From assembly GCF_001618955.1 (NCBI RefSeq), contig NZ_LVYV01000023.1, positions 310,001-374,000 on the forward strand: a DNA stretch of 64,000 nucleotides. Reading direction: 5' to 3'. The notes under the pieces were generated by a model that saw only the letters and a program-made list of their open reading frames with translations, did not search any database and was not told where the DNA came from. The DNA is from Tardiphaga robiniae (lineage in GTDB: Bacteria; Pseudomonadota; Alphaproteobacteria; Rhizobiales; Xanthobacteraceae). Position 1 is the stretch's first letter. Every line of letters starts with the position of its first letter. Positions 43,862-61,307 of this stretch are shown here, in pieces. The position numbers were made by a program, and so were the translations under genes.

Positions 43862-44281
43862 CTACACTTTTGGTGGGGCCACGCTGAACGTGCCATTCGC
43901 TCGGGCGCAAGGCTCGCCATCCGCTGATATCAGCGCCTGCGCAAAGCAGAGACGTTTGCCGGTCTTGATCACCTCGGTGTCGATCTGCAGCCATTGCCCG
44001 ATCTGTGCCGAGCCGAGAAAATCGGCGGAGAGATTGACGGTGAGCAGCCGTGCGCCGCCGCCGAGCACATGGCCGCAGCTCAGGCCCATCGCATTATCGG
44101 CGAGCGCCGTGATCAGCCCGCCATGCGCCATGCCGCGCGAATTGGTATGCGCTTCGGCAATGCGGAGGCCGAGGATGACATTAGTCTCCGTCACCTTTGA
44201 ATAGATCGGTTCCCACGGTGCGGTGAGGGGGCTCTTGCGATAGTGCGGCGCGAAGCCGTCGGGGATCGTGGTGTCGGTCAT
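43862..44281 (-). CDS. PaaI-type hotdog thioesterase
   Basis: A 139-residue hotdog-fold protein. The core HGGLITALADNAMGLSCG matches the PaaI/4-hydroxybenzoyl-CoA thioesterase family, in which Asp of the ALADxA block is catalytic. It hydrolyses acyl- or aryl-CoA thioesters. It converges on the LysR gene with six bases between stops. Lying beside pobA, it could release aromatic acids from CoA, which is inference. Confidence 0.88.
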   Translation of the reverse strand: MTDTTIPDGFAPHYRKSPLTAPWEPIYSKVTETNVILGLRIAEAHTNSRGMAHGGLITALADNAMGLSCGHVLGGGARLLTVNLSADFLGSAQIGQWLQIDTEVIKTGKRLCFAQALISADGEPCARANGTFSVAPPKV

Positions 44282-44508: not shown

Positions 44509-45732
<1,224 letters not shown>

Positions 45733-45792: not shown

Positions 45793-45805
45793 TTATAACA
45801 TATAA
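45793..45805. promoter_or_regulatory. Candidate CouR-type operator A (TTAT-N5-ATAA)
   Basis: TTATAACATATAA, an AT-only palindrome in the pobA/tarP divergent promoter. The same 13-bp pattern occurs at 50667-50679 and 60599-60611, in the other two control regions of the cluster. Confidence 0.6.
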
Positions 45806-45884
45806 CAATATCCGCAAAGGGCCATTCAAGGTCCGGTGAACACGTTCGAGAGAACACGTCCAAACGGACGTAGAGGGAGAGACG

Positions 45885-46907
45885 ATGAGGAAAGCAATTC
45901 TCGCATTGCTGGCGGCTGGCTGCATCATGCCAGTGCTCACGCCCGCGCAGGCGCAAGACAAAACCGTCAATATGAAAGTGTCACTGTGGGTGCCACCGGC
46001 GCATCCGCTGGTGCCGGCCACGCAGGCCTGGGCCGCCGATATCGAGAAGGCCTCGGGCGGCAGCATCAAGATGTCGGTATTCCCCTCCGAGCAGCTCGGC
46101 AAGGCATTCGACCATTACGACATGGCGCGCGACGGCATCGCCGACATCACTTACGTGAATCCCGGCTATCAGCCCGGCCGTTTCCCGATCGCTGCCGCGG
46201 GGCAAATTCCGTTCGTGTTCTCGGAAGGCAAGAAGGGGACGCAGGCATTTAACGAGTGGTACCAGAAATACGCCAAGACCGAGATGAAGGATACGAAACT
46301 CTGCTTCGCCTTCATCCACGCGCCCGGCACGCTGCATGGCAAGAAGAAGATCGTGCTGCCGTCGGACCTCAATGGCGTGAAGGTCCGCCCGGCGCAAAGT
46401 ACCATCGGTGAAATGGTCAAGCTGTTCGGCGGCACCAATGTGCAGGCCTCGGCGCCGGAATCGCGCGATGCGATCGAACGCGGCGTGGCCGACGAGATCG
46501 CGTTCCCGTGGGGATCGATCTTCCTGTTCGGCATCGATAAGGTGGTGAAGTATCACATCGATGCGCCGCTCTATTCGACGGTGTTCACCTACAATATCAA
46601 CCTCGCCAAATACAACTCCATGTCGGACGGGCAGAAGAAGATCATCGACGATCACTGCACCCCGGAATGGGCCGCCAAGGTCACCGACCCTTGGGTGGAC
46701 TACGAGGCTGCCGGCGTTGCCAAGATGAAAGCGCTGCCGGATCACGAGGTCTATCCGCTGACCCCGGAGCAACTTGCTGCCTGGAAGAAGGGAGTCGAGC
46801 CGTTGCACACCGCCTGGTCCGCCGCGGTCAAGAAGGCTGGCGGCGATGCGGATGCGATCGATGCAGAACTCAAGGCGTCGCTGAAGAAGCACAGCGCGGG
46901 GTTGTGA
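45885..46907 (+). CDS. tarP: TRAP transporter substrate-binding protein, TarP-like
   Basis: A 340-residue periplasmic DctP-type binding protein with a signal peptide ending near residue 23 (PAQAQ). Landmarks are VSLWVPPAHPLVPATQAWAADIEKASGG, PGTLHGKKKIVLPSDLNGVKVR (with the Arg that grips the carboxylate of the ligand) and AFPWGSIFLFGIDK. In Rhodopseudomonas palustris the TarPQM system imports p-coumarate and related acids. Assignment to that system rests on neighbours (pobA, cou genes). A REP-like element separates it from tarQ. Confidence 0.88.
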   Translation: MRKAILALLAAGCIMPVLTPAQAQDKTVNMKVSLWVPPAHPLVPATQAWAADIEKASGGSIKMSVFPSEQLGKAFDHYDMARDGIADITYVNPGYQPGRFPIAAAGQIPFVFSEGKKGTQAFNEWYQKYAKTEMKDTKLCFAFIHAPGTLHGKKKIVLPSDLNGVKVRPAQSTIGEMVKLFGGTNVQASAPESRDAIERGVADEIAFPWGSIFLFGIDKVVKYHIDAPLYSTVFTYNINLAKYNSMSDGQKKIIDDHCTPEWAAKVTDPWVDYEAAGVAKMKALPDHEVYPLTPEQLAAWKKGVEPLHTAWSAAVKKAGGDADAIDAELKASLKKHSAGL

Positions 46908-46917
46908 GAGTAGCACC

Positions 46918-47028
46918 GTCGTTCCGGGGCGCGCGCGTGCAACGCGCGTGAACCCGGAACCTCGAGGTGTTCAACCATACCGGGATTCCGGGTTCGCGCG
47001 GGCGTCGCCCGCACGCCCCGGAATGACG
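46918..47028. repeat. REP-like palindromic element, family A, copy 2 (inside the TRAP operon)
   Basis: GTCGTTCCGGGGCGCGCG at the left and CGCACGCCCCGGAATGAC at the right form long complementary arms, with GGGATTCCGGGTTCGCG inside. It lies 11 bases after the tarP stop and about 48 bases before tarQ, so it should be transcribed with both. Confidence 0.85.
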
Positions 47029-47075
47029 AGTTTGTTGCAAGACGAGTTCCGTTCTCCCATGAAATCATATCCCCC

Positions 47076-47642
47076 ATGACCACCACGCCAGAAATCTCCC
47101 AATCCGGCGCCCTCGGTATTTCCCCGGAGCCTCCGCGCAGGAACGTGATGGATCGCTTCATCGATTCCATCGAGTGGATCGCCGCGTTCTTCGTCGGTAT
47201 CGTCGCGTTGAACACCTTCATCGCGGTGTTCATGCGCAAGTTCTTCGCGGTGACGATCCCGGATTACTACAATGTCGGTCAGTTCATGCTCGGCGTGCTG
47301 ATCTTCTGGGGCATCGCCGCGACCAGCTATCGCGGCTCGCACATTACCGTGGATCTGGTATGGGCCAATGCCACGCCGAAATACCAGCGCTGGATCGACG
47401 TGTTCGCAACACTGGTGCTTCTGTTCGTCGTAACGGTGCAGACCTACACGCTGTTCGACAAGGTCACGGATACCTATCGCAGCAATCTTGTCACCATGGA
47501 TCTCCAGCTGCCGGTCTGGCCGTTCTTCCTGTTGTCCTGGATCGGCGACGGCGCCGCCGTGCTGCTGATCGCCATCCGTACCTACCGGCTGATCTTCCAT
47601 CCCGAAGAGATGCACGAACCCGAAATCAAGACGGCAGAGTAA
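47076..47642 (+). CDS. tarQ: TRAP transporter small permease (DctQ/TarQ-like)
   Basis: A 188-residue membrane protein with four helices (AAFFVGIVALNTFIAVFMRKF, MLGVLIFWGIAATSYRGSHI, VFATLVLLFVVTVQTYTLF, WPFFLLSWIGDGAAVLLIAIR). The sequence YRGSHITVDLV is the conserved DctQ loop. It forms a complex with the large permease and uses the sodium gradient, by family knowledge. The large permease gene starts six bases after its stop. Confidence 0.92.
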   Translation: MTTTPEISQSGALGISPEPPRRNVMDRFIDSIEWIAAFFVGIVALNTFIAVFMRKFFAVTIPDYYNVGQFMLGVLIFWGIAATSYRGSHITVDLVWANATPKYQRWIDVFATLVLLFVVTVQTYTLFDKVTDTYRSNLVTMDLQLPVWPFFLLSWIGDGAAVLLIAIRTYRLIFHPEEMHEPEIKTAE

Positions 47643-47647
47643 GTCGC

Positions 47648-48958
47648 ATGGATCTCAGTAACGAAGCGGTTGCCGTCATCGGCTTTGTCAGCCTGTTCGT
47701 GCTGATGTTGCTGCGAGTGCCGGTTGGCATGGCGATGGGCCTGGTGGGCATCACGGGATTTGGCTATCTCACGGGCTTCGCGCCGGCGCTGAAACTGGTC
47801 GGCCAGACTACCATGCGGACGGTGACGGACTATTCCTTTGGCGTGATCCCGATGTTCCTCCTGATGGGCGCCTTCGTCTCGGTGTCCGGCATCAGCCGCG
47901 AGCTGTTTCGCGCGGCCAACACCTTTGTCGGCCACTGGAAGGGTGGCCTCGGCATCGCCACTATTGCGGCCTGCGGCGGCTTTGCCGCGATCTCCGGCTC
48001 GTCGGTAGCGACGGCCGCGACATTCTCCGCCGTTGCCTATCCGGAAATGCGGCGTTTCAATTATCCGCAGAGCTTCGCCACCGGCGTCATCGCCGTGGGC
48101 GGTACGCTCGGTGCGATGCTGCCGCCGTCCACAGTGTTGGCGGTTTACGGCATCATTACCCAGCAGGACATCGGCAAATTGTTCATCGCCGGCATCGTGC
48201 CGGGCCTGCTCGCCATCGTGATGCACATGATAACCATTGCGATCATCGGCGTGGTCAAGCCGGGCTTCTTACCGGCTGGCCCGAAAGCCTCGTGGCGCGA
48301 GCGCGCCGCGGCGATCCGCGATGTTTGGTCGCCATTGTTGCTGTTCGTCTTCGTGATTGGCGGCCTTTATGGTGGCTTCTTCATCCCGACCGAAGCCGGT
48401 GCGGTCGGCGCGGTCGGTGCGTTCATCATCGGCGTACTGCGCGGCAAGCTGAACAAGGACGGCATCCTGCAGTCACTACTACAAGCGACGCGGACCGCGG
48501 CTGCCGTGTTCACCGTGCTCATCGGTGCGCTGTGCTTTGGCTATTTTCTCACCATTACCCAGACCCCGCAGCACGTCACCGAGTTCCTCACCGGTCTCGG
48601 CATCGGCCCCTACGGCGTGCTGGCGCTGATCCTCCTGATGTATCTGGTGCTGGGCTGCCTGATGGATGCCATGGCCATGGTGATCCTCACGGTGCCGATC
48701 GTGTTTCCGGTGATCATGGCGCTTGGTTTCGATCCGATCTGGTTCGGCATCGTCATCGTCATGACCGTCGAGCTCGGCCTGATTCACCCGCCGGTCGGCA
48801 TGAACGTCTTCGTCATCAAGAGTGTGATCAAGGACGTCAGCATGTCGACGATATTCAAAGGCGTGCTGCCATTCGTGTTTACGGACCTGATCCGGCTTGT
48901 GCTGCTGATCCTGTTCCCGCTGATTGCCACCTGGCTGCCGATGCGGATGATTGGGTGA
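47648..48958 (+). CDS. tarM: TRAP transporter large permease (DctM/TarM-like)
   Basis: A 436-residue polytopic permease with about 12 helices. DctM features are LLRVPVGMAMGLVGI, the GSSVATAATFSAVAYPEMRRFNYPQSFATGVIAVGGTLGAMLPPSTVLAVYGI block and HPPVGMNVFVI near the end. ATG at 47648 starts the protein; the longer upstream reading runs through tarQ in another frame and is rejected. It forms the translocation channel with tarQ and receives ligand from tarP. Confidence 0.95.
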   Translation: MDLSNEAVAVIGFVSLFVLMLLRVPVGMAMGLVGITGFGYLTGFAPALKLVGQTTMRTVTDYSFGVIPMFLLMGAFVSVSGISRELFRAANTFVGHWKGGLGIATIAACGGFAAISGSSVATAATFSAVAYPEMRRFNYPQSFATGVIAVGGTLGAMLPPSTVLAVYGIITQQDIGKLFIAGIVPGLLAIVMHMITIAIIGVVKPGFLPAGPKASWRERAAAIRDVWSPLLLFVFVIGGLYGGFFIPTEAGAVGAVGAFIIGVLRGKLNKDGILQSLLQATRTAAAVFTVLIGALCFGYFLTITQTPQHVTEFLTGLGIGPYGVLALILLMYLVLGCLMDAMAMVILTVPIVFPVIMALGFDPIWFGIVIVMTVELGLIHPPVGMNVFVIKSVIKDVSMSTIFKGVLPFVFTDLIRLVLLILFPLIATWLPMRMIG

Positions 48959-48962
48959 TGTC

Positions 48963-49427
48963 ATGATCACACCGCCGCTTGCGACGAAATATGTCTTCAG
49001 CCTGTCGATCAAGGTCGGGGCACCGATCGTGGCCGGCGATCTCGGATATGGCATCCGTCGCGTCATCCCGGTCCTTGGCGGCACCGTGCAGGGTGAGGGC
49101 ATCAAGGGTACGATCCATCCGGGCGGCGCCGATTTCCAGGTCATCCGTCCGGACGGCTTTACCGAGCTTGAAGCAAAATACACGTTCGAACTCGATGACG
49201 GCGCTGTTGTCTATATCGAGAATATCGGCGTCCGCTTCGGGCCGAAGGAACCGCTCGACTGCATTGCGCGCGGCGAGGCCGTCGATCCCGCTTTGATCTA
49301 TTTCCGCTCGGTGCCGAAATTCGAGACCGGGCATCCGAAGTATCGCTGGCTGATGCAGAACCTGTTCATCGGCGTCGGCGCGCGGCATCCGGATCGGGTC
49401 GAATTGGCCGTGCACCAGATATTGTAG
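48963..49427 (+). CDS. DUF3237 family protein
   Basis: A 154-residue cytosolic protein, beta-rich, with GTVQGEGIKGTIHPGGADFQVIRPDGFTELEAKYTFELDDGAVVYIENIG, the DUF3237 core. No activity is known. The ATG at 48963 lies four bases after the tarM stop, so it is part of the same operon. Its constant place with aromatic-acid genes here suggests a role in handling their substrates, but this is inference. Confidence 0.88.
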   Translation: MITPPLATKYVFSLSIKVGAPIVAGDLGYGIRRVIPVLGGTVQGEGIKGTIHPGGADFQVIRPDGFTELEAKYTFELDDGAVVYIENIGVRFGPKEPLDCIARGEAVDPALIYFRSVPKFETGHPKYRWLMQNLFIGVGARHPDRVELAVHQIL

Positions 49428-49594
49428 CGTCGCAGCGCAGCAAGATCCCGGACTACTCGTCGCATTTTAAACGATGTGACAAGGCGATAACTGCCGGCGA
49501 CTTCCTGACGCGTTCGTTTCGCTTACTTTGGCCAGCTTCGTATTGTTAACTCGACTCGACCGGAAAAATCCGGCGATCATCGGGAGGATACAAT

Positions 49595-50530
49595 ATGCTG
49601 AAAGCTTGCGTGCTTGGGTGTTCGATGTCTCTGTTGGCCGTCATGTCGTCTGCATCAGCGCAGGACTGGACCAAATCGAAATGGGGCCCGAATGACGAAA
49701 TCGGCGCCGCCAACTATATGAAGCCGGAACTGGTGAAGTCTGCTGCGCAACTGGTGAAGACCGGCAAGACCTATGCACTCGGCATTCCGGTGGGCGCGGA
49801 TACGCCGGCCTATCCGCCCCGCGGTTTCAAGATCACCGTTGTACAGCCCGGTCAGGCCGGCAATCCCGGGCTCGGTCCCAATCATGCGACCTACAACGAC
49901 GACATGCTCAACGGCTGGGTCGGCGTCGGCAGCCAGATGGATGGGCTCGGCCATCTCGGCGTCAATCACGTCTACTATAACGGCAACAAAATTGCTGACT
50001 TCGGTGATCCCACTGGCCTTAAGAAGCTCGGCATCGACAAGGTGCCACCGCTGGTCACCCGTGGCGTGCTGCTGGACATGGCGGCCTACTACAAGACCGA
50101 CGTGGTCAAGGAAGGCACGGCTTTCAACGTCAAGGAAATCGAGGAGGTCGCCAAGGCGCAGGGCATCGAGATCAGGCAAGGCGACGTCGTGCTGTTCCAC
50201 ACCGGATGGCTCAGCCTGCTCGGCAAGGACGATAAACGCTACAATGCCGGCGAGCCCGGCCTTGGCGCCGAGGGCGCCAAATATCTGACCAGCAAAGGTG
50301 TCGTCGCGGTCGGCGCCGATACCTGGGGCGTCGAGGTGTTGCCGTTCGAAACCGGCAATGTGTTTGAAATCCACCAGATACTGTTGGCGATGAACGGGAC
50401 CTACATCCTCGAAAACATGGACACATCCGAACTGGCCAAGGACAAAGGCTACGAGTTCCTGTTCGTGCTCGGTCAGCCCCGCTTCAAGGGCGGTGTGCAG
50501 AGCATGATCAACCCGGTGGCGATCCGCTAG
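49595..50530 (+). CDS. Cyclase-family (KynB-like) protein with signal peptide
   Basis: A 311-residue protein. The signal peptide ends near residue 22 (SSASAQ), so the protein is periplasmic. The cyclase/formamidase domain carries SQMDGLGHLGVN (metal-binding pattern SQxDGxxH in place of the usual HxGTHxDxxxH), GVLLDMAAY and VVLFHTGWLS, and GADTWGVE. Family members hydrolyse N-formylkynurenine or other amides and esters. Here it could act on an aromatic ester or amide before uptake (inference). A 167-base gap separates it from DUF3237, so it may have its own promoter. Confidence 0.85.
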   Translation: MLKACVLGCSMSLLAVMSSASAQDWTKSKWGPNDEIGAANYMKPELVKSAAQLVKTGKTYALGIPVGADTPAYPPRGFKITVVQPGQAGNPGLGPNHATYNDDMLNGWVGVGSQMDGLGHLGVNHVYYNGNKIADFGDPTGLKKLGIDKVPPLVTRGVLLDMAAYYKTDVVKEGTAFNVKEIEEVAKAQGIEIRQGDVVLFHTGWLSLLGKDDKRYNAGEPGLGAEGAKYLTSKGVVAVGADTWGVEVLPFETGNVFEIHQILLAMNGTYILENMDTSELAKDKGYEFLFVLGQPRFKGGVQSMINPVAIR

Positions 50531-50666
50531 CCATCGTGGGAGAGGCGATCCGGTCTGTTCTGCGGGGCAGGCGAGACCGGATCGCTGTTGTGCACCGGAA
50601 TACCCGACTTTTTGTAGGACGAAATCAGCCCCTATTGCACCGCAAGATTGACTCATTCGGAGTTCG

Positions 50667-50679
50667 TTATAAGATATAA
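50667..50679. promoter_or_regulatory. Candidate CouR-type operator B (TTAT-N5-ATAA)
   Basis: TTATAAGATATAA, 28 bases upstream of the couA-like start. It differs from site A by one base in the non-symmetric centre. Confidence 0.6.
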
Positions 50680-50707
50680 TTATTCTAGCCAGGACCTAAT
50701 CGCGCTC

Positions 50708-51499
50708 ATGAACCAAACCGTCGCCGCTGCCGCCGCCATGCTCCAGATTGAAACCCAGGGTCGCGTGCTGATCGTGGGCCTGAACCGTCCCGCCAAGCGC
50801 AACGCGCTGAACGATGGACTGATCCTGGACATCGAGCGTTGCTTCGCGTCGCTGCCGGAAGACATCGGCGCGGTGGTGGTGCATGGCATCGGCGGGCATT
50901 TTTCCGCGGGTCTCGATCTGTCCGAACTCACCGAGCGCGACGCGACGGCCGGCCTCATGCATTCGCGGATGTGGCACCGGGTGTTCGATATCATCCAGCA
51001 TTGCCGCGTCCCGGTGATCGCCGCACTGCAGGGTGCCGTGATCGGCGGCGGGCTTGAACTGGCTTGCTCCACACATATCCGCGTTGCCGATCCCTCGGTC
51101 TATTACGCGCTGCCGGAAGGCAGCCGCGGCATCTTCGTCGGTGGCGGCGGGTCGATGCGTCTGCCGCGCCTGATCGGTGTGCATCGGATGGCCGATATGA
51201 TGCTCACCGGCCGCGTCTACAAGGCGGAGGAGGGCATGTCGCTCGGCTTCGCGCAGTATCTGACGGAAGCCGGCGGGGCCTTGCCCAAGGCCATCGAGCT
51301 TGCCGAGCGTGTCGCGCAGAACGCACCGTTGACAAATTTTGCCGTGCTGCAGGCCTTGCCGCTGATCGCCGAAGCCAGTCCGCAGACGGGCCTGATGCTC
51401 GAAGCGCTGATGGCCTCGGTGGCGCAGAGCGATCAGGAGGCGAAAAATCGCATCAGGGATTTTCTGGAGCGCAAGGCCGGCAAGGTGAAGCCCGGCTAA
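50708..51499 (+). CDS. couA: Enoyl-CoA hydratase/aldolase, CouA-like
   Basis: A 263-residue crotonase. Oxyanion-hole segments are GIGGHFSAGLDLSEL and QGAVIGGGLELACSTHIRVA; a Glu appears in YALPEGSRGIFVGGGGSMRLPRL, the catalytic position. In R. palustris CouA hydrates p-coumaroyl-CoA, and related enzymes cleave it to 4-hydroxybenzaldehyde and acetyl-CoA. The ATG at 50708 is chosen since an earlier one (50648) would place the operator inside the gene. The CouB-like ligase follows after 65 bases. Symbol assigned by cluster context. Confidence 0.85.
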   Translation: MNQTVAAAAAMLQIETQGRVLIVGLNRPAKRNALNDGLILDIERCFASLPEDIGAVVVHGIGGHFSAGLDLSELTERDATAGLMHSRMWHRVFDIIQHCRVPVIAALQGAVIGGGLELACSTHIRVADPSVYYALPEGSRGIFVGGGGSMRLPRLIGVHRMADMMLTGRVYKAEEGMSLGFAQYLTEAGGALPKAIELAERVAQNAPLTNFAVLQALPLIAEASPQTGLMLEALMASVAQSDQEAKNRIRDFLERKAGKVKPG

Positions 51500-51564
51500 T
51501 CCAGCAAGACGACAACGAACAAAAATAAAAGCAACAATCGGGACGAATACACAGGGCGGAAACA

Positions 51565-53448
51565 ATGTCTGCAAGTGCCGACAAAATCGATCAGACAAAG
51601 CGAACGATAACCGCGCATCCGCTGCGGCCGATTTCCTATGGCGATCCCGCGGTCACCATCGAACGCCACGACGACGGCACCATCTATCTGCGCCCGACCA
51701 ATACGATCGGTGACTATCCGGAACGCGTCACCGATTATCTGCATCACTGGGCCAGGGAGACGCCGGATCGCGTCTTCATGGCCGAGCGCGCGGAAGGCGG
51801 CGGCTGGCGCGAGGTCACTTACGCGCAGATGCTGGATGCCGCGCGCCACATCGCCTCGGCGCTGTTATCGCGTGGGCTGTCCGCCGACAGGCCCATCGTC
51901 ATTCTCTCGGGCAATTCCATCGATCACGCGCTGATCGCTTTCGGTGCGCTCTATGCCGGCATTCCCTATGCGCCGGTGTCGCCGGCTTATTCGCTGGTGT
52001 CGAAGGACTACGGCAAGCTCGGCTATCTCATGAAACTACTGACTCCGGGGCTGGTCTTCGTCGATGACGCCAATGCGTTCACGAACGCCATTCACTTCAA
52101 TGTACTGGCCGACACCGAAGTCGTCGTTTCCACTGGCGCTCTGCCGGACCGGTCGGTGACCAAACTCTCCGATCTGCTCGTGACGCCGGAGGCCGCCAAT
52201 CTCGACGCTGCGAACGCTGCCATCGGTCCTGACACCATCGCGAAGTTTTTGCTGACCTCAGGCTCCACCGGCAATCCGAAGGCTGTGATCAACACCCAGC
52301 GCATGATGTGCGCCAACCAGATCATGCTGCGCGATACGCTGGCCTTCCTCAAGGACGAGCCGCCGGTGATCATCGATTGGTTGCCATGGAATCACACCTT
52401 CGGCGGCAATCACAATATCGGGCTGACGCTGTTCAATGGCGGCTCGATGTATCTCGACGACGGCAAGCCGACGCCCGCGGGCATCGAACAGACAATTCGT
52501 AATCTCCGCGAGATCTCGCCGACGGTCTATTTCAACGTCCCCAAGGGCTATGAATCGCTGCTGCCCTATCTGCGCAAAGATGCAGAGCTGCGTGAAAAAT
52601 TCTTCGCCCGCTTGCATGCGATGTTCTTCAGCGGCGCGGCGCTGTCCGCCTATGTTTGGGACAGCCTCGATGAGCTCTCGGTTCAGACCACCGGCGTGCG
52701 CGTGCCGATGCTGACGGGTCTCGGCGCGACCGAGACCTCACCCTTCTTCATGTGCGTCAATCCCGTGACCAGCCGTTCCGGCCATGTCGGCCTTCCGGTG
52801 CCGGGCAACGAGGCCAAGCTGGTGCCGAACAACGGCAAGATGGAAGTACGCGCCAAGGGGCCGAACATCACGCCCGGCTATTGGCGCGAGCCGGAGTTGA
52901 CGGCGAAAGCGTTCGACGAGGAAGGCTATTACATCTTCGGCGATGCGCTGAAGGCCGTCGATCCCAATGATCTTTCCGCTGGTTTCGATTTCGACGGCCG
53001 CATCTCCGAGGATTTCAAGCTTGGCAGCGGCACCTGGGTCAGCGTCGGCCCGCTGCGTGCACGCTTCGTCGGCACCTGTGCGCCGCTCGTGCGCGACGTG
53101 GTGATCGCGGGTATCAACCGCGATGAACTTGCAGCGCTCGTGATCCTCGATCTCGATGGCTGTCGCATGATCAATCCCGACCTGCCGGCTGGCGATCTTG
53201 CCGCGGCGGCTAATGATCCGATCATCCGCGACGCGTTCTGTGAGCGCCTCACGCGCTTCATGGCCGGCGCCACCGGCTCCTCGACGCGCATCGCCAAGGC
53301 GGTGCTGCTCGACATGCCGCTGTCCATCGATCGCGGCGAGGTCACGGACAAGGGCTCAGTCAATCAACGCGCGGTGCTGGAGCATCGCGCCAAGTTGATC
53401 GACGATATTTATGGAAATCCGGAAGCCGTGAAGGTGATTGCGATTTGA
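51565..53448 (+). CDS. couB: p-Coumaroyl/feruloyl-CoA ligase, CouB-like
   Basis: A 627-residue AMP-forming ligase that would activate hydroxycinnamates. LLTSGSTGNPKAVINTQRMM is the phosphate-binding loop (about residues 229-248), PVIIDWLPWNHTFGGNHNIG and GLGATETSPFFM follow, and the C-terminus carries RGEVTDKGSVNQRAV as in its paralog at 29784. These features set the feruloyl-CoA synthase branch apart from ordinary FadD. It follows the crotonase and precedes the SDR, all in one direction. Confidence 0.88.
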   Translation: MSASADKIDQTKRTITAHPLRPISYGDPAVTIERHDDGTIYLRPTNTIGDYPERVTDYLHHWARETPDRVFMAERAEGGGWREVTYAQMLDAARHIASALLSRGLSADRPIVILSGNSIDHALIAFGALYAGIPYAPVSPAYSLVSKDYGKLGYLMKLLTPGLVFVDDANAFTNAIHFNVLADTEVVVSTGALPDRSVTKLSDLLVTPEAANLDAANAAIGPDTIAKFLLTSGSTGNPKAVINTQRMMCANQIMLRDTLAFLKDEPPVIIDWLPWNHTFGGNHNIGLTLFNGGSMYLDDGKPTPAGIEQTIRNLREISPTVYFNVPKGYESLLPYLRKDAELREKFFARLHAMFFSGAALSAYVWDSLDELSVQTTGVRVPMLTGLGATETSPFFMCVNPVTSRSGHVGLPVPGNEAKLVPNNGKMEVRAKGPNITPGYWREPELTAKAFDEEGYYIFGDALKAVDPNDLSAGFDFDGRISEDFKLGSGTWVSVGPLRARFVGTCAPLVRDVVIAGINRDELAALVILDLDGCRMINPDLPAGDLAAAANDPIIRDAFCERLTRFMAGATGSSTRIAKAVLLDMPLSIDRGEVTDKGSVNQRAVLEHRAKLIDDIYGNPEAVKVIAI

Positions 53449-53497
53449 TTGAAAGCCACCAACGAGCGGCAGAGAAATCGAAACACGGGAGGATATC

Positions 53498-54259
53498 ATG
53501 CAACTGAAGAACCAGGCCGCCATCGTCACCGGCGGCGCATCCGGCCTCGGCGCGGCAACGGCCCGCAGGCTCGCTGCGCAAGGCGCAAAGGTCGCGCTGC
53601 TCGATCTCAACACAACGCTTGCCGACACCGTTGCAAAGGAGATCGGCGGCATCGCCATTTCCTGCGACGTGTCCGACGCCGCCTCTGCTGAAGCCGCGGT
53701 CGTCGCCGCCGCCAAGGCGCACGGCCCGGCGCGTGTGCTGGTGAACTGCGCCGGCATCGGCGTCGCCAAGCGCGTGATTGGCCGCGATGGTCCGATGGCG
53801 CTCGGCGATTTCGACAAGGTGATCCGCGTCAACCTTATTGGCTCCTTCAACATGATCCGCCTGGCAACGGACCCGATGTCCAAGCTGGAGCCGCTGGAAA
53901 CCGGCGAGCGCGGCGTTGTGATCTCGACGGCCTCGGTGGCGGCCTATGACGGCCAGATCGGCCAGTCCGCCTATTCGGCGTCCAAGGGCGGGATTGTCGG
54001 CATGACGCTGCCCATCGCCCGCGAAATGGCGCAGTTCGGCATTCGCGTGCTGACCATCGCGCCGGGCCTGTTCATGACGCCGCTTTTGGCCGGCCTGCCG
54101 CAGGAGGCGCAGGACAGTCTCGCCGCGGCGATCCCGTTCCCGCGCCGGCTCGGCCATGCCGACGAATTCGCGTCTCTCGCACTGCACATGATCGATAATC
54201 CGTATCTGAACGGCGAGGTGGTCCGGCTCGACGCCTCGCTGCGCATGGCGCCACGTTAA
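53498..54259 (+). CDS. SDR oxidoreductase, 3-hydroxyacyl-CoA dehydrogenase type
   Basis: A 253-residue SDR, paralog of the gene at 27898. It shows TGGASGLG, NCAGIG, STASVAAYDGQIGQSAYSASKGG (catalytic Ser and YSASK) and the same C-terminus LNGEVVRLDASLRMAPR. It would oxidise a 3-hydroxyacyl-CoA formed from the hydrated cinnamoyl-CoA, which would allow a beta-oxidation branch. GGGAGG precedes the ATG. It lies 50 bases after the ligase. Confidence 0.9.
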   Translation: MQLKNQAAIVTGGASGLGAATARRLAAQGAKVALLDLNTTLADTVAKEIGGIAISCDVSDAASAEAAVVAAAKAHGPARVLVNCAGIGVAKRVIGRDGPMALGDFDKVIRVNLIGSFNMIRLATDPMSKLEPLETGERGVVISTASVAAYDGQIGQSAYSASKGGIVGMTLPIAREMAQFGIRVLTIAPGLFMTPLLAGLPQEAQDSLAAAIPFPRRLGHADEFASLALHMIDNPYLNGEVVRLDASLRMAPR

Positions 54260-54275
54260 GCCTGCGGCAAAGCAT

Positions 54276-54310
54276 CAGTGCGCCGGCCCTTTACCGGTAA
54301 GGGCGCACTG
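54276..54310 (+). other. Intercistronic hairpin upstream of the first binding-protein gene
   Basis: CAGTGCGCC (54276-54284) pairs perfectly with GGCGCACTG (54302-54310); the interior TTTACC/GGTAA adds a bulged stem. No T-run follows. It lies between the SDR stop and the couP-like gene and could be an RNA processing or stability element. Confidence 0.55.
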
Positions 54311-54388
54311 ACCTAAAGAAGGGGCTGATCAACCAGCCGAACTTTGATTTAGCTGAGAACATAAAAAATAACCTGGAGGGAGAGACCC

Positions 54389-55537
54389 ATGACCAAGCAT
54401 CACTTGGCGATCGCGGCCGTTGCCGCCTCGCTGGCACTGGCCGGCCCGGCCATTGCCCAGACCCCCGACATCACCATCGGCATCACAACGTCAACCACCG
54501 GCCCCGCCGCGGCGCTGGGCATTCCCGAGCGCAACGCACTCGAATTCGTGCCCAAGGAAATCGGCGGCGTTCCGCTGAAGGTTATCGTGCTCGACGACGG
54601 CGGCGATCCGACCGTCGCGACCACGAACGCTCGCCGCTTCGTCACTGAATCCAAGGCCGACATCATCATGGGATCGGCCACGACGCCGCCGACCATCGCG
54701 GTCTCGACCGTCGCCAACGAAGCCGGCATTCCGCATTTCGGTCTCGCGCCGTTCCCGATCACGCCGGAGCGCGCCAAGTGGTCGGTCGGCATGCCACAGC
54801 CGGTGCCGATCGTCGGCAAGGTGATGTATGATCACATGAAGTCGAAAGGCATCAAGACCATCGGCTATATCGGTTACTCCGACTCCTACGGCGATCTCTG
54901 GTTCAACGATGTGAAGAACCAGACCGGTCCGATGGACATGAAGGTCGTCGCCGAGGAGCGTTTCGCGCGCCCGGACACTTCCGTCACCGGTCAGGTGCTG
55001 AAGCTGATCGCCGCCAATCCTGACGCGATCCTGATCGGCGCCTCCGGCACTGCCGCGGCGCTGCCGCAGACCGAGCTGCGCGACAAGGGCTACAAGGGCC
55101 TGATCTACCAGACCCATGGTGCTGCCAGCATGGACTTCATCCGCATTGCCGGCAAAGCCGCCGAGGGCGTGCTGATGGCGTCGGGCCCGGTGATGTATCC
55201 GGAAGGTCAGGCCGATACGGCCCTGACCAAGAAGCCCGGTCTGGCGCTGAACGCAGCCTATGAGGCCAAATACGGCCCCAACAGCCGCAGCCAGTTCGCC
55301 GGCCACTCCTATGACGCCTTCGAAGTGCTGAAGCGGGTGATCCCGGTGGCGCTCAAGACTGCTAAGCCGGGTACCCCCGAGTTCCGCGAAGCTATCCGCC
55401 AGGCGCTGATGACCGAGAAGGAAATCGCGGCCTCCCAGGGCGTCTACAACTTCACGGAAAAGGATCGGTATGGCCTCGATGAGCGTTCGCGCATCCTGCT
55501 GACGGTGAAAGACGGCAAATACGTTCTCGCCCAGTAA
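54389..55537 (+). CDS. couP: ABC transporter periplasmic binding protein, CouP-like, copy 1
   Basis: A 382-residue LIV-type (type I) binding protein. The signal peptide ends at about residue 23 (GPAIAQ). Landmarks are ITTSTTGPAAALGIPERNALEF, VLDDGGDPTVATTNARRFV and RSQFAGHSYDAFEVLKR. In R. palustris CouP binds p-coumarate, ferulate and related acids with high affinity. The next gene is a tandem paralog. A leader of 129 bases with a hairpin and GGAGGGAGA before the ATG separates it from the SDR gene. Confidence 0.9.
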   Translation: MTKHHLAIAAVAASLALAGPAIAQTPDITIGITTSTTGPAAALGIPERNALEFVPKEIGGVPLKVIVLDDGGDPTVATTNARRFVTESKADIIMGSATTPPTIAVSTVANEAGIPHFGLAPFPITPERAKWSVGMPQPVPIVGKVMYDHMKSKGIKTIGYIGYSDSYGDLWFNDVKNQTGPMDMKVVAEERFARPDTSVTGQVLKLIAANPDAILIGASGTAAALPQTELRDKGYKGLIYQTHGAASMDFIRIAGKAAEGVLMASGPVMYPEGQADTALTKKPGLALNAAYEAKYGPNSRSQFAGHSYDAFEVLKRVIPVALKTAKPGTPEFREAIRQALMTEKEIAASQGVYNFTEKDRYGLDERSRILLTVKDGKYVLAQ

Positions 55538-55602
55538 TGCAGATCTGACGGAGGGCAGGGGCGCCAAGCGCCTTTGCTTCGCCGGCATTTTTCGATAACA
55601 AG

Positions 55603-55631
55603 GCCGGCCCTCGCCAGAGGGTCGGCTTTTT
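55603..55631 (+). terminator. Terminator after binding-protein copy 1
   Basis: GCCGGCCCTC (55603-55612) pairs with GAGGGTCGGC (55617-55626), with one G-U pair, loop GCCA, then five Ts. It separates the two tandem binding-protein genes. Confidence 0.85.
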
Positions 55632-55729
55632 GCTGTGCGCGAGCCTTCGCGCGGCCACAACCAGCGCCACGTCTGCCGGCATCGCTGCCGCTTTCGGCGC
55701 TCTCCGCTTCCACACGAGAAAGATTCGAT

Positions 55730-56878
55730 ATGTCCAAGCTTCATCTGGCGATTGCGGCCATTGCCGTCTCGCTGGCCATTGCGACCCCCGCTGAAACCCA
55801 GACTGCCGACATCGCCATCGGCATCAGCCTGTCGACCACCGGCCCTGCCGCGGCGCTGGGCGTGCCCGAGCGCAATGCACTTGAATTCGTGCCCAAAGAC
55901 ATCGGCGGCGTGCCGCTGAAGCTGATCGTGCTCGATGACGGCGGCGATCCCTCCGTCGCGACCACCAATGCGCGCCGCTTCGTGTCGGAATCCAAGGCCG
56001 ACATCATGGTTGGCTCGTCGATCGTACCGTCCTCGGTCGCCATGTCGGCGGTCGCCAACGAAGCCGGCGTGCCGCATTTCAGCCTGTCGCCGATGCCGTT
56101 CACGCCGGCGCGTGTGAAGTGGTCGGTGGATATGCCGCAACCGGTCGAGATTGTCGGCAAGGTCATGTACGACCACATGAAGGCCCATGGCGTGAAGACC
56201 ATCGGCTATGTCGGTTACTCAGACAGCTATGGCGACCTGTGGTTCAACGACCTCAAGGCCCAGACCAGTGCGATGGGCATGTCCATCGTCGATGATGAGC
56301 GCTTCGCGCGTCCTGATACGTCGATCACCGGCCAGGCGCTGAAGCTGATTGCAGCCAATCCCGATGCGATCCTTATTGGCGCGGCCGGCACCGGTGCCGG
56401 CATGCCGCAGTCCGAATTGCGCGACCGCGGCTACAAGGGCCTGATCTACCAGACCCACGGCGCCGCCTCGAACGACTTCATCCGCATCGCCGGCAAGTCT
56501 GCCGAAGGCGTGCTGATGGCTGCGGGCCCGGTGATGTATCCGGAAGGCCAGCCCGATACGGCGCTGACCAAGAAGCCCGGTCTCGAACTCAACGCAGTCT
56601 ATGAAGCTAAATACGGCGCCCACAGCCGCAGCCAGTTCGCCGGTCACGCCTATGACGTGTTCGAAGTGCTCAAGCGCGTCGTGCCCGTCGCGCTGAAGAC
56701 CGCCAAGCCTGGCACCCCGGAATTCCGCGAAGCCATCCGCCAAGCGCTGATGAGCGAGAAGGAAATCGCCGCGACACAGGGCGTTTACAACTACACCGAA
56801 CAGGACCGCAACGGCGTCGACGATCGCTCGCGGATTTTGCTGACTGTGAAGGACGGGAAGTACGTTCCGGCGAAGTAA
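55730..56878 (+). CDS. ABC transporter periplasmic binding protein, CouP-like, copy 2
   Basis: A 382-residue paralog of the previous gene, equal in length and alike along its whole length (PAAALG(I/V)PERNALEFVPK, LRD(K/R)GYKGLIYQTHGAAS). The signal peptide differs (ends near AETQ). Substitutions such as GSATTPPT versus GSSIVPSS and HFGLAPFPIT versus HFSLSPMPFT fall in regions that line the pocket in such folds, so ligand preference may differ. The ATG at 55730 is preceded by GAGAAAG. It ends before a strong bidirectional terminator. Confidence 0.9.
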   Translation: MSKLHLAIAAIAVSLAIATPAETQTADIAIGISLSTTGPAAALGVPERNALEFVPKDIGGVPLKLIVLDDGGDPSVATTNARRFVSESKADIMVGSSIVPSSVAMSAVANEAGVPHFSLSPMPFTPARVKWSVDMPQPVEIVGKVMYDHMKAHGVKTIGYVGYSDSYGDLWFNDLKAQTSAMGMSIVDDERFARPDTSITGQALKLIAANPDAILIGAAGTGAGMPQSELRDRGYKGLIYQTHGAASNDFIRIAGKSAEGVLMAAGPVMYPEGQPDTALTKKPGLELNAVYEAKYGAHSRSQFAGHAYDVFEVLKRVVPVALKTAKPGTPEFREAIRQALMSEKEIAATQGVYNYTEQDRNGVDDRSRILLTVKDGKYVPAK

Positions 56879-56895
56879 GGCGGAACACAGCTCAA

Positions 56896-56930
56896 ACAAA
56901 AGCCGGCTGTCGCGAGACAGCCGGCTTTTT
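56896..56930. terminator. Bidirectional terminator between copy 2 and the ABC ATPase gene
   Basis: AGCCGGCTGTC (56901-56911) pairs perfectly with GACAGCCGGCT (56916-56926), loop GCGA, with A-run on the left and T-run on the right, so it can serve both convergent genes. Confidence 0.93.
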
Positions 56931-56943
56931 CATATGATCGAGA

Positions 56944-57675
56944 TCAGATTGCGCTCGCGCCTTCGTGCTGAAAGCCAAGATAGCTGGCCACGACGCGCTG
57001 GTTGCTGGCGATATCGCTGGCGACGCCATCGAGGATGAATTCGCCGAGCTCCATCACATAGGCACGATCCGCGATCTTCAGCGCGGCCTGCGCATTCTGC
57101 TCGACCAGCAGCACCGAGACGCCGGCCGCCCTGAGCTCACTGACGATGCGGAAGATGTCGGCGACGATGATCGGGGCGAGGCCGAGGCTCGGCTCGTCGA
57201 GCATCAAGAGCTTTGGCGCGCCCATCAGAGCACGGCCCATGGCCAGCATCTGCTGTTCGCCGCCCGACAATGTGCCGGCCAGTTGCTTGCGGCGTTCCTT
57301 GAGGCGCGGGAACAGGGTGTAGACGTGCTCGAAAGATCGCGCGGCAGTCGCCTTGTCGATACGGAAGGCGCCGAGCAGCAGGTTGTCTTCCACATTCATC
57401 GTGGCGAACAATTCGCGATGTTCGGGCACGAGGCTGAGGCCGGCAGCGACGCGGTCTTCGATGTCGATCTTGGAGACGTCCTGTCCGGCGAATGTCACGC
57501 CACCCTTCAGCGGCAGGATGCCCATCACCGCATTGAGCAGAGTGGTCTTGCCGGCGCCGTTGGCGCCAATGATCGTGACGATCTCGTCGGCGCGAACCTC
57601 GAGATTGACCGCACGGACCGCCTCGACCTTGCCATAGGCGACATGCGCATCGGTGACTTGCAGCAACGCGCTCAT
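56944..57675 (-). CDS. ABC transporter ATP-binding protein, LivF type
   Basis: A 243-residue ABC ATPase. Walker A is GANGAGKTT, the signature is LSGGEQQMLAMGRAL, and Walker B is LLMLDEPSLGL, with the LivF-type ending. It pairs with the LivG-type half of the upstream fusion protein. Its ATG overlaps the stop codon of the fusion gene (ATGA), so the subunits are made in step. With the two CouP-like proteins it forms the likely hydroxycinnamate ABC importer (CouPSTW-like). Confidence 0.93.
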   Translation of the reverse strand: MSALLQVTDAHVAYGKVEAVRAVNLEVRADEIVTIIGANGAGKTTLLNAVMGILPLKGGVTFAGQDVSKIDIEDRVAAGLSLVPEHRELFATMNVEDNLLLGAFRIDKATAARSFEHVYTLFPRLKERRKQLAGTLSGGEQQMLAMGRALMGAPKLLMLDEPSLGLAPIIVADIFRIVSELRAAGVSVLLVEQNAQAALKIADRAYVMELGEFILDGVASDIASNQRVVASYLGFQHEGASAI

Positions 57676-59447
57676 GCGACCGCTCCCAGATAGGCCTTGA
57701 TGACGTCGGGATTGGTCTTGATGTCAGCCGGTGTGCCCTCGGCGATTTTGGTGCCGAAATCGAGCACCACGATGCGGTTGGCGAGATTCATGACGAAGCC
57801 CATGTCGTGTTCGACCAGCAGCACCGACATGCCGCCATCGCGCAGCTGCCGCAGCAGCGATGCCAGTTGCTGCTTCTCCATGTGGCGGAGGCCGGCCGCG
57901 GGCTCGTCGAGCAGCAGTAGCATCGGATCGACGCAGAGTGCGCGGGCGATCTCGACGATGCGTTGCTGGCCGAGCGACAAGGATCCTGCGAGCTGGTTCA
58001 TCTGGTCGCCGAGACCGACACGTTCGATCTGCTTGGCAGCTTCCGCGAGCAGCTTCGCTTCGTCGGCGCGGTCAAGCCTCAGCATGCTGGCGATGGCGCC
58101 CGAACGTCCGCGCAGATGCGCGCCGAGGGCGACGTTTTCCAGCACGGTCATATCGGGCACCAGCTTCACATGCTGGAAGGTACGGGCAATGCCGAGCTTG
58201 ACGATCTCCTGCGGCGGCGCGCCGGACACACTCTTGCCGAGTACCGCGACCTTGCCGGCGGTCGCGGCCAGTACGCCGGTGATGAGGTTGAAGGTCGTAC
58301 TCTTGCCGGCGCCGTTGGGGCCGATCAAAGCGACGATCTCGCGCGCCTGCACGTTGAACGACACGTCGTTGACGGCGACGACGCCGCCAAACTGCTTGCG
58401 TGCCTTGTCGACCTGCAGCAATACGCCGGTATCCGGACGATGGTCGTTGCGGGCGGGCAGTGCATCGGCCGGTGCGGGGCGCTTGCGGCTGTCGCCAGAC
58501 GGCAGCCACGCGGTCAGCCACGGCCACATGCCAGTCGGCGCGAGTTGCAGCAGCGTGACGAGCAGGATGCCGAACACGATGGTTTCGAGCTGGCCACCGC
58601 CGCCGCCGAAGATCAGCGGCAGATAGCTCTGCAGGACTTCCTTGAGGATCACAACCACGGCTGCACCGAGCACGCCGCCCCAGACATAGCCTGCGCCGCC
58701 GACCACCGCGATGAACAGATATTCGATACCGAGATGCGGTCCGAACGGCGTCGGATTCGCAGCGCGCTGGAAATGCGCATAGAGCCAGCCGGACAGGCCG
58801 GCGAGAACTGCTGCGTAGATGAAGACCAGGAGCTTTGCGCGTGCCGTCTGCACGCCGAAGGCTTCGGCGGCAATATGGCCGCGGCGTAGCGCGCGGATGG
58901 CGCGGCCGGTCCGCGAGTCCAAAAGATTCATGGACAGCAGCGCGCAGATGATGACCGCGATCCAGATCGGGAAGTAGATCGAGCCGGGATCCAGCATCTT
59001 CCAGTTGCCGATCGACAGCGGCGGGATGCCCGAGATGCCGTCGTTACGGCCGAGGAATTCCAGCTTGCTGAACAGATAGAACAGGCTGATGCCCCAAGCA
59101 ATGGTGCCGAGCGGCAGGTAATGCCCGGACAGGCGCATGGTGATGATGCCGAGCAACACCGCGGCGAGGCCTGAGACGATCAGCGACATTGGCAGCGTCA
59201 GCCACGGCGACATCCCGTAAGCCGTGGTGAGATAGGCCGTGGTGTAGGCGCCGAAACCGCAGAACGCCGCTTGGCCGAATGAGGTCAGGCCGCCGACGCC
59301 GGTGAGCAGCACGAGGCCCATGGCGACAAGCGCGGCGAGGCCGATATTGTCGAGCAGCACGATCCAGAATGGCGGCACGCCCGGCACGAACGGGATTGTG
59401 GCCATCACCAGCGCGAAGACGAGAATGGGAAGGATACGCGACGTCAT
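57672..59447 (-). CDS. Fused LivM-type permease and LivG-type ATPase
   Basis: A 591-residue fusion. Residues 1-310 form a LivM-type permease with about ten helices ([58 protein letters not shown]). After a linker of 35 residues the LivG-type ATPase follows: GPNGAGKST (Walker A), [15 protein letters not shown] (signature), [11 protein letters not shown] (Walker B). The start at 59447 places it six bases after the upstream permease stop; a longer reading to 59858 would overlap that gene. Permease-ATPase fusions of this kind are known in the LIV family. Confidence 0.92.
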
Positions 59448-59452
59448 GGTGC

Positions 59453-60493
59453 TCAATCCTTCTCTTCTTCGACTGCAGGTGCGGCGAGCGAACGCAGCAC
59501 CAGAACCGGAAGGATCAGCGTGAAGACGATGACTTCCTTGTAGTTGCTTGCATAGAACGATGAGAACGCCTCGACGCAGCCGACCAGAATCGCGGCGGCG
59601 GCCGTGAGCGGATAGCTGACGAGGCCGCCGATGATGGCGGCGATGAAGCCCTTCAGGCCGATCAGGAAGCCGGTGTCGTAATAGAGGGTGGTGATCGGCA
59701 CGATCAGGATGCCCGAGATGGCGCCGATGACCGAGGCCAGCAGGAACGCGATCTGGCCGGAGAGCGACGTGCGGATGCCGACGAGACGGGCACCGAGGCG
59801 GTTGACGGCGGTGGCGCGCAGCGCCTTGCCATAGAGCGTGTAGCCGAAGAACAGCCACAACCCGACGATTAGTGCGATGGTGATGCCATAGACGGCGATG
59901 CTCTGGCCGGTGAAGCGCAGCGCGCCGATGGTGATGGCGTCAGACGAGATCGCAGGTCCCCGCTGGCCCTCGGCACCGAAGAAGACGAGGCCAAAACCCT
60001 GTAGCGCGAGATGGCAGCCCACCGAGGCGATCAGCAGCACCAGAACCGAGGTGTGGGCGATCGGCTGGAACGCGATGCGGTAGAGATAGAGTCCGATCGC
60101 GGCGACGATCAGCAGAGACAGCGCGATGTTGAGGGCGATATTCCCCGGTCGTCCACCCAGCGCCCACATCACGCCCCAGATCGCCAGCGGGAACACGATA
60201 TTGACCGCAATCGAGCGCAGTACGCGCCTGGCATCGAGCGCCTTGCGGAAGGTGAAGAGATCGAAGGCAAAGGCCACGACGCCCATGGCGACGGCGAGCT
60301 TGATGGTGCCCGGCATCTGGCCGGCCGAGAGGCTGGCATAGGTCAGCGCACCAAAGGTGATGAATTCGCCCTGGGGGATCAGGATGATGCGCGTCACCGC
60401 AAAGACCAGCACCAGGGCCAGCCCGAGCAGCGCATAGATCGCGCCATTGGTGATGCCGTCCTGCAAAAGGAACAGCAAAATCGTCGTATTCAA
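59453..60493 (-). CDS. ABC transporter permease, LivH type
   Basis: A 346-residue permease with eight or so helices. LivH features are ITNGAIYALLGLALVLVFAVTRIILIPQGEFITFGAL and the motif AVNRLGARLVGIRTSLSGQIAFLLASVIGAISGILI. The suggested start is TTG at 60493 (MNTTILLFLLQDG) because GGGGGAG lies eight bases upstream; a reading to 60535 would include that site. It is the first gene of the leftward three-gene ABC unit and is divergent from the MarR gene. Confidence 0.92.
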   Translation of the reverse strand: MNTTILLFLLQDGITNGAIYALLGLALVLVFAVTRIILIPQGEFITFGALTYASLSAGQMPGTIKLAVAMGVVAFAFDLFTFRKALDARRVLRSIAVNIVFPLAIWGVMWALGGRPGNIALNIALSLLIVAAIGLYLYRIAFQPIAHTSVLVLLIASVGCHLALQGFGLVFFGAEGQRGPAISSDAITIGALRFTGQSIAVYGITIALIVGLWLFFGYTLYGKALRATAVNRLGARLVGIRTSLSGQIAFLLASVIGAISGILIVPITTLYYDTGFLIGLKGFIAAIIGGLVSYPLTAAAAILVGCVEAFSSFYASNYKEVIVFTLILPVLVLRSLAAPAVEEEKD

Positions 60494-60582
60494 AGCCGCG
60501 CGCTCCCCCACACTGTCTGGCGCGCCGGATACCACAGGCGCGGGACGATCAACAATGGCGGTTGAAACCCGCCGTCTATTTG

Positions 60583-60613
60583 ATATACTTCATAACGATT
60601 ATTGAACATAATC
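60583..60613. promoter_or_regulatory. Candidate CouR-type operators in the couR/ABC divergent promoter
   Basis: A 17-bp perfect palindrome GATTAT-TGAAC-ATAATC (60597-60613) includes TTAT-N5-ATAA at 60599-60611. An imperfect second site, ATATACTTCATAA at 60583-60595, lies beside it. Placement between the LivH-type gene and the MarR gene would allow control of both. Confidence 0.6.
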
Positions 60614-60677: not shown

Positions 60678-61184
60678 ATGACTGTTTCAAAGATGACGTC
60701 TCAGGATCAAGCCAAGCAGGTCGCGCCCGTCGGGTTCGACGAGGAGGGCGGTGCGCTGCAGCTCGGCGAACTGTCAGAGCTGCTGGGCTATTCGCTGAAA
60801 CGCGCGCAGTTGAAGGTGTTCGAGGACTTTCTGCGCTGCATGGCGCCGCTGCAGCTGACGCCGGCGCAGTTCTCGGTCCTGCTACTGCTGGACAAGAACC
60901 CCGGCCGCAACCAGACTGAAATCGCCAATACGCTCGGCATTCTCCGTCCAAATTTCGTTTCGCTGCTTGACGCGCTGGAGAGCCGCGACTTGCTGACGCG
61001 GATGCGCTCGCCGAGCGATCGCCGCTCCCATGTGCTGATGCTCACCGACAAAGGCCGGGCCACGCTGGCGCGCGCGAAGAAGCTGGTGGCCACGCGGCAC
61101 GAGGCCCGGCTGATCGAGGTGCTGGGGCCGGCTGAGCACAAAGCGCTGCTCGGGATGATGGCGAAGATCGCTCGGGAGTTCTAA
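60678..61184 (+). CDS. couR: MarR-family regulator, CouR-like
   Basis: A 168-residue MarR repressor. The winged helix reads LTPAQFSVLLLLDKNPGRNQTEIANTLGILRPNFVSLLDALESRDLLTRMRSPSDRRSHVLMLTDKG. In R. palustris CouR represses couAB and is released by p-coumaroyl-CoA; the cluster context suggests the same here. The ATG at 60678 has GGAAAGCGAG upstream. It is divergent from the ABC permease gene, with palindromic AT-rich sites between. Confidence 0.88.
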   Translation: MTVSKMTSQDQAKQVAPVGFDEEGGALQLGELSELLGYSLKRAQLKVFEDFLRCMAPLQLTPAQFSVLLLLDKNPGRNQTEIANTLGILRPNFVSLLDALESRDLLTRMRSPSDRRSHVLMLTDKGRATLARAKKLVATRHEARLIEVLGPAEHKALLGMMAKIAREF

Positions 61185-61186
61185 TT

Positions 61187-61307
61187 GTCATTCCGGGGCG
61201 CGATCTCGGCGCAGCCAAGAGCGCGAGCCCGGAATCCCAATATGTGAATCTCATTTCGAGATTCCGGGTTCGCGACCGCCAAGTCGCGCTCGCGCCCCGG
61301 AATGACG
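61187..61307. repeat. REP-like palindromic element, family A, copy 3
   Basis: GTCATTCCGGGGCGCGAT at the left and GCGCCCCGGAATGAC at the right, with GGAATCCCAATATG and GAGATTCCGGGTTCGCG inside. It starts two bases after the couR stop and ends nine bases before the convergent glycerate kinase stop, filling the gap. Confidence 0.87.

What the first reader, a model, noticed from the sequence alone, without database searches (positions are those of the whole stretch)
45793..60613. A shared TTAT-N5-ATAA palindrome marks the three control regions of the hydroxycinnamate cluster
TTATAACATATAA (pobA/tarP gap), TTATAAGATATAA (28 bases before the couA-like start) and TTATTGAACATAA (inside a perfect 17-bp palindrome between the ABC permease and the MarR gene) fit one 13-bp pattern with eight fixed A/T bases. 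In such GC-rich DNA chance matches should be rare. They sit where a CouR-type repressor would need to act, and would tie pobA and the TRAP system into one regulon with the CoA ligase pathway. This is a joint control not shown by the gene list alone.
Basis: partly seen in the sequence, partly recalled or inferred. Interest (0 to 1): 0.7.

Follow-up and report, generated by a model that had tools for sequence, protein, structure and literature searches.

The report
Shared CouR operator across hydroxycinnamate cluster
Three matching 13-base DNA signs very likely let one repressor switch a plant-phenol breakdown cluster as a unit, as already known in the relative Rhodopseudomonas palustris; the same sign also shows a doubled site beside the repressor gene and, in relatives, marks a far-away enzyme gene.

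Summary
Confirmed; the core is known, with two extensions. TTAT-N5-ATAA occurs exactly three times in the window (0.07 expected) and at eight places in the 6.36-Mb genome, a Tardiphaga. The MarR gene encodes a CouR orthologue (PDB 6c28). In 34 loci (window plus 33 relatives, 678 kb) all 96 exact matches lie before tarP, couA, couR or pobA, none elsewhere; the backwards pattern gives 3. Joint control of couAB, ABC and TRAP genes by CouR was already reported for R. palustris (PMC3610893); pobA remains an inference. Extensions: (1) the permease/couR gap carries a tandem operator, a one-mismatch copy exactly 16 bp upstream of the exact site in 80 of 80 named loci (window 60583-60595). (2) An exact site precedes a distant amidohydrolase gene in 33 of 49 CouR-bearing genomes that have the gene but in 0 of 11 Tardiphaga genomes; close orthologues of the gene are in 49 of 54 CouR genomes and 0 of 80 tested genomes without CouR. 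CouR binding was not tested, and the key CouR papers are not held, so whether these extensions are already in print is open.

The parts
45793..45805 (.). Operator 1, TTATAACATATAA, in the divergent pobA/tarP gap (79 bases before tarP ATG, 111 before pobA start)
   Evidence: exact site in 28 of 30 loci that have tarP
50667..50679 (.). Operator 2, TTATAAGATATAA, 28 bases before couA ATG, behind TTGACT (50648-50653), a possible -35 box
   Evidence: exact site in 31 of 31 loci with couA; TTGAC kept in 27 of 31
60599..60611 (.). Operator 3a, TTATTGAACATAA, in the divergent permease/couR gap
   Evidence: exact site in 34 of 34 loci and 80 of 80 named loci
60583..60595 (.). Operator 3b, one-mismatch copy ATATACTTCATAA exactly 16 bp left of 3a (tandem operator)
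   Evidence: same offset, one mismatch, in 80 of 80 named loci
60678..61184 (+). couR, MarR-family repressor (168 aa)
   Evidence: Pfam MarR; PDB 6c28 CouR E=3.5e-70
44509..45681 (-). pobA, 4-hydroxybenzoate 3-monooxygenase
   Evidence: NCBIfam TIGR02360, 699 bits
45885..46907 (+). tarP, TRAP substrate-binding protein
   Evidence: Pfam DctP
47076..48958 (+). tarQ (47076-47642) and tarM (47648-48958), TRAP membrane subunits
   Evidence: Pfam DctQ and DctM
50708..51499 (+). couA, enoyl-CoA hydratase family
   Evidence: Pfam ECH_1
51565..53448 (+). couB, acyl-CoA ligase
   Evidence: Pfam AMP-binding
54389..56878 (+). Two couP-like ABC binding-protein genes, 54389-55537 and 55730-56878
   Evidence: Pfam Peripla_BP_6 for both
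56944..60535 (-). ABC ATPase (56944-57675), permease-ATPase fusion (57672-59447) and permease (59453-60535 as longest frame; true start uncertain), divergent from couR
   Evidence: Pfam ABC_tran, BPD_transp_2

Best explanation
The three sites, plus the degenerate fourth copy beside couR, are operators of the CouR repressor encoded at 60678-61184. Without inducer a CouR dimer sits on each TTAT-N5-ATAA site, one half-site per winged helix, over or just behind the -10 region of the tarP, couA and permease/couR promoters. When hydroxycinnamate enters, the CouB ligase makes p-coumaroyl-CoA (or feruloyl-CoA), which releases CouR, so uptake (TRAP, ABC), activation and cleavage genes and probably pobA are switched on together. 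The tandem pair beside couR likely holds two dimers and serves both divergent promoters, including self-control of couR. Shown here: position, conservation and specificity of the sites, and orthology of the regulator. Inferred: binding by CouR, the ligand, repression as the sign of control, promoter positions, the two-dimer reading of the tandem, and control of pobA.
For: Three sites against 0.07 expected. In 34 loci all 96 exact matches lie within 330 bases upstream of tarP (28), couA (31), couR (34) or, where couP replaces tarP, pobA (3); none elsewhere, backwards control 3. Exact arms are found in 31 of 31, 34 of 34 and 28 of 30 loci although the centre has 15, 16 and 14 different sequences. 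80 of 80 named couR loci have the exact site. Four more distant MarR homologues (39-47% identity) have no exact site within their 3.4-kb loci. couR: PDB 6c28/6c2s/6c9t CouR, E=3.5e-70. In R. palustris CouR controls couAB, TRAP and ABC genes and answers to p-coumaroyl-CoA (PMC3610893, passages). A TTGAC box sits just upstream of the couA site in 27 of 31 loci.
Against: No binding or expression data were available here, and the R. palustris CouR papers are not held, so the motif could not be compared with the measured operator. The 33 relatives were chosen for having CouR, so co-occurrence of site and CouR in them is not an independent test. The exact tarP site is missing in 2 of 30 loci with tarP (L177 none; L189 only one-mismatch copies). 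One couR orthologue locus (L023) has only a one-mismatch site. The couA TTGAC box is absent in 4 of 31. Consensus promoter hits in the region are no more than chance (4 against 4.2). Genome-wide the backwards pattern is commoner than the real one (15 against 8).
Confidence: 0.92

Rival explanations
1. The strings are only A/T-rich -10 promoter elements that look palindromic; no regulator reads them.
For: They lie near likely -10 positions, and TATAAT-like hexamers lie inside two of them.
Against: Both arms recur exactly while the centre, which would include -10 bases, varies. The palindrome occurs at these promoters and nowhere else in 678 kb. The couR region keeps two copies at a fixed 16-bp offset.
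Confidence: 0.03
2. A different regulator, not CouR, binds these sites and CouR acts elsewhere.
For: Binding was not tested; the relatives were chosen for having CouR and no other regulator was sought across them. A LysR-type gene lies at 42956-43855.
Against: CouR's own gap carries the site, and twice. MarR regulators bind inverted repeats (PMC4737184, passages). R. palustris CouR is reported to control the same genes (PMC3610893, passages). More distant MarR homologues lack the site.
Confidence: 0.05
3. The matches are chance in A/T-rich intergenic DNA.
For: The pattern was drawn after the sites were seen.
Against: Exact recurrence at orthologous positions in 34 loci and none elsewhere.
Confidence: 0.005

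Closest known systems
CouR regulon of Rhodopseudomonas palustris (RPA1794; couAB, CouPSTU ABC, TarPQM TRAP)
   Different: The window and all 12 same-genus loci examined have two couP-like genes, the other 21 loci one; an SDR gene is in 8 of those 13 and in none of 7 g44 loci (window). No operator precedes the distant amidohydrolase gene in Tardiphaga.
CouR of Rhodococcus jostii RHA1
   Same: MarR repressor released by p-coumaroyl-CoA; inverted repeat with 5-bp spacer (PMC4737184, passages).
   Different: Box is cATTGA-N5-TCAATg; papers give about 25% or 36% identity to R. palustris CouR.
FerC (Sphingobium) and HcaR (Agrobacterium, Acinetobacter)
   Same: MarR repressors of hydroxycinnamate genes; FerC and Agrobacterium HcaR released by CoA thioesters (passages).
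   Different: Acinetobacter HcaR is said to bind the unesterified ligand. Not compared by sequence here.

Membership tests
R. palustris-type CouR regulon | Repressor orthologous to RPA1794 CouR | tested here: met
   PDB 6c28 E=3.5e-70; 77% identity over 149 residues of a 160-residue query
R. palustris-type CouR regulon | Linked couAB, ABC and TRAP genes with couR divergent from the ABC genes | tested here: met
   a shared couR/ABC promoter was suggested in PMC3223731 (passage)
R. palustris-type CouR regulon | Shared operator at tarP, couA and couR promoters, also in Rhodopseudomonas | tested here: met
   1 of 7 g44 loci (L177) lacks the tarP site
R. palustris-type CouR regulon | Operator equals the experimentally determined CouR site | not testable with these tools
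   Hirakawa 2012 and Cogan 2018 not held; in the passages seen PMC9594313 gives only lengths (29 and 31 bp) and GC content (31 and 32%) of the two CouR sites used
R. palustris-type CouR regulon | Binding abolished by p-coumaroyl-CoA | not testable with these tools
   needs purified protein
Rhodococcus-type CouR box | cATTGA-N5-TCAATg repeat | tested here: not met
   the three sites read TTAT-N5-ATAA

The most novel reading that the evidence does not exclude
CouR's regulon reaches beyond the cluster to a conserved, uncharacterised amidohydrolase with the fold of aromatic-acid decarboxylases, a missing enzyme of hydroxycinnamate use that escaped this control in Tardiphaga. Control at couR itself uses two dimers on a fixed 16-bp tandem operator.
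Probability: 0.6. Interest if true: 0.5.

Novelty: new member of a known kind. Interest (0 to 1): 0.4.

Why it matters
The finding gives a base-level candidate operator for CouR. In three of four Rhodopseudomonas genomes searched, the extended form RTTATN5ATAAY occurs just three times each, at tarP, couA and the amidohydrolase gene; couR's own site there ends in G and does not fit that form, and other genera have more unexplained matches. The work extends a known regulon to Tardiphaga and relatives, points to an enzyme of unknown role that follows CouR's distribution, and offers a natural case where an operator is absent. It could also help in building p-coumaroyl-CoA sensors.

Tried and rejected
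Other genome sites. Of the five other TTATN5ATAA places in G000, four lie inside mechanical reading frames and were not followed. C23:181872 lies between a LysR-type gene and a Peripla_BP_6 gene; neither gene occurs in the 10-11-kb stretches fetched around similar or other sites of G012, G009 and G001. A string found in five Tardiphaga genomes (GTTATGCGCCATAAT) seems to overlap the start of a short frame, ATGGCGCATAAC (my reading), so I took it as coding conservation.

Other regulators for the amidohydrolase operator. The neighbours scanned differ between genera (TPR, HAD hydrolase, FAS1 dehydratase region, fatty acid desaturase, IclR regulator, aldo/keto reductase). Only one of them, in G212, is a regulator (IclR, next to the gene). 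Only selected neighbours were scanned, so a local regulator is not excluded everywhere.

Promoter and terminator consensus scans gave about what chance gives. Function of the amidohydrolase: NCBIfam had no match; the nearest solved structure is uncharacterised (3irs).

They replace evidence from a tarM query that was out of frame, and settle the couP copy number, which could not because it printed one hit per query.
Full report
What is there. The window holds a hydroxycinnamate cluster: pobA (44509-45681, minus), TRAP genes tarPQM (45885-48958), a DUF3237 gene, a cyclase-like gene, couA (50708-51499), couB (51565-53448), an SDR gene, two couP-like genes, three ABC genes on the minus strand, and couR (60678-61184). 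I therefore call the genus (g1) Tardiphaga.

The observation. TTAT-N5-ATAA occurs three times in 64 kb against 0.07 expected and at eight places in 6.36 Mb; the backwards pattern has 15 there. The third site is not a perfect 17-bp palindrome: its arms are 6 bp with a free centre of 5.

Conservation. I took 20-kb stretches upstream of couR from 13 close genomes (12 g1, one g6) and from 20 of the 54 family genomes with a strong CouR match, chosen by me. With 18.4 kb of the window that is 34 loci and 678,400 bases. All 96 exact matches lie within 330 bases upstream of a gene start: tarP 28 (of 30 loci with tarP), couA 31 of 31, couR 34 of 34, and pobA in the three g42 loci where couP replaces tarP. 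None lies elsewhere; the backwards pattern gives 3. Misses: L177 has no tarP site, L189 only one-mismatch copies. The sites were picked by exact match, so their arms are constant by construction; the evidence is that an exact match is there in nearly every locus while the centre has 14-16 variants in each main class. Of six further CouR orthologues (L011, L014, L017, L020, L023, L024) five have the exact site and one (L023) a one-mismatch site; four distant MarR homologues (L025-L028) have no exact site. All 80 named loci (the best 80 of 228) have the exact couR site.

Tandem operator. In the same 80 loci a copy with one mismatch starts exactly 16 bp upstream of the exact site; the next best offset tested averages 2.5 mismatches. 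In the window it is ATATACTTCATAA at 60583-60595. The stricter joined pattern RTATN5ATAACRATTATN5ATAA is found in 163 of 280 fetched loci, once each (many of these loci overlap, and many of the rest do not cover couR). A 16-bp offset would put two dimers on different faces of the helix; this is inference.

A far target. One g44 genome, G195, has a contig of 5,269,926 bases, a length given for the R. palustris PS3/YSC3 pair in the abstract of PMC6109142 as listed (PS3 by order); I call g44 Rhodopseudomonas. In four g44 genomes searched RTTATN5ATAAY occurs 3, 3, 3 and 4 times. In three these are tarP, couA and one distant site; the fourth (G195) has one more (L209, not explained). couR's own g44 site ends in G and is not counted by this form. 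In other genera the form is less specific: 15 genomes gave 1-10 matches with 0-9 for the backwards pattern, and G166, G123, G082 and G220 gave 10, 7, 5 and 4. The distant g44 site begins 54-68 bases before the match to an amidohydrolase gene (PF04909) in 8 of 8 g44 genomes. A close orthologue (86% or more) is in 49 of 54 CouR genomes (26 of 27; 23 of 27); missing in G220, G118, G194, G171 and G073. It is in 0 of 80 genomes without a strong CouR match; 7 of those 80 have a 58-66% homologue, and their upstream regions have no exact site, though one (G047) has a one-mismatch site at -71; a second weak match in G021 was not scanned. I tested 80 of the 144 genomes without CouR; most were recognised by absence from the match list. 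Kinship confounds this, but within g44 and g36 the gene and CouR are absent together (G119; G052, G093, G114), while in g42 three CouR genomes lack the gene. The exact operator lies upstream in 33 of 49 (17 of 26; 16 of 23). It is missing in all 11 Tardiphaga, both g6, one of three g42 and two of three g59 genomes. Its usual flank ATAATCAATTC recurs at two g56 tarP sites, and four g56 amidohydrolase sites carry the couA flank ATAAYTATTCT, which suggests one shared regulator. The model (pLDDT 86) best matches the uncharacterised 3irs (23% identity), then ACMSD-type folds including dihydroxybenzoate and 5-carboxyvanillate decarboxylases at 14-17%; the substrate is unknown.

Mechanism. See best explanation. 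The couA site lies just behind a TTGAC box in 27 of 31 loci and the tarP site behind TTGC in 22 of 28, consistent with a repressor blocking the -10 region. pobA: the site is kept in the pobA gap where couP replaces tarP (three g42 loci), which favours pobA control; but it is also kept before tarP in g56 loci where no pobA was found (L187, L188), so it does not prove it.

Known or new. PMC3610893 (passages) states that TRAP, ABC and pathway genes form one CouR regulon in R. palustris. PMC3223731 (passage) already proposed a bidirectional couR/ABC promoter and listed pobA and TRAP in the cluster. The paper searches brought up nothing on a CouR-controlled amidohydrolase or a tandem CouR site in the listings and passages seen, but the library lacks the two key CouR papers, so I make no claim of absence from print. 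The core is a new member of a known kind.

Noticed in passing
42956-43855 and 43862-44281: A LysR-type regulator gene and a 4HBT thioesterase gene lie beyond pobA; the thioesterase may correspond to RPA1780 of R. palustris, called phenylacetic acid degradation related in PMC3223731.
   Followed up: partly
54389-55537 and 55730-56878: Two couP-like binding-protein genes in tandem. All 12 same-genus loci examined have two, the other 21 loci (g6 and other genera) one, so the doubling looks specific to Tardiphaga.
   Followed up: yes
46922-47027 and 61187-61306: Two intergenic stretches each pair a TTCCGGGG arm with a CCCCGGAATGAC arm, perhaps copies of a dispersed repeat.
   Followed up: partly
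L239 4941-8115: G009 contig C92 has TTATTTGTTATAACACAT-like elements at three places, perhaps sites of another regulator.
   Followed up: no
L209 4002: G195 (R. palustris) has one further RTTATN5ATAAY site (GTTATCATCAATAAT) of unknown context.
   Followed up: no
L145 (G205): The CouR match in G205 is reported with one TAG inside its frame.
   Followed up: no
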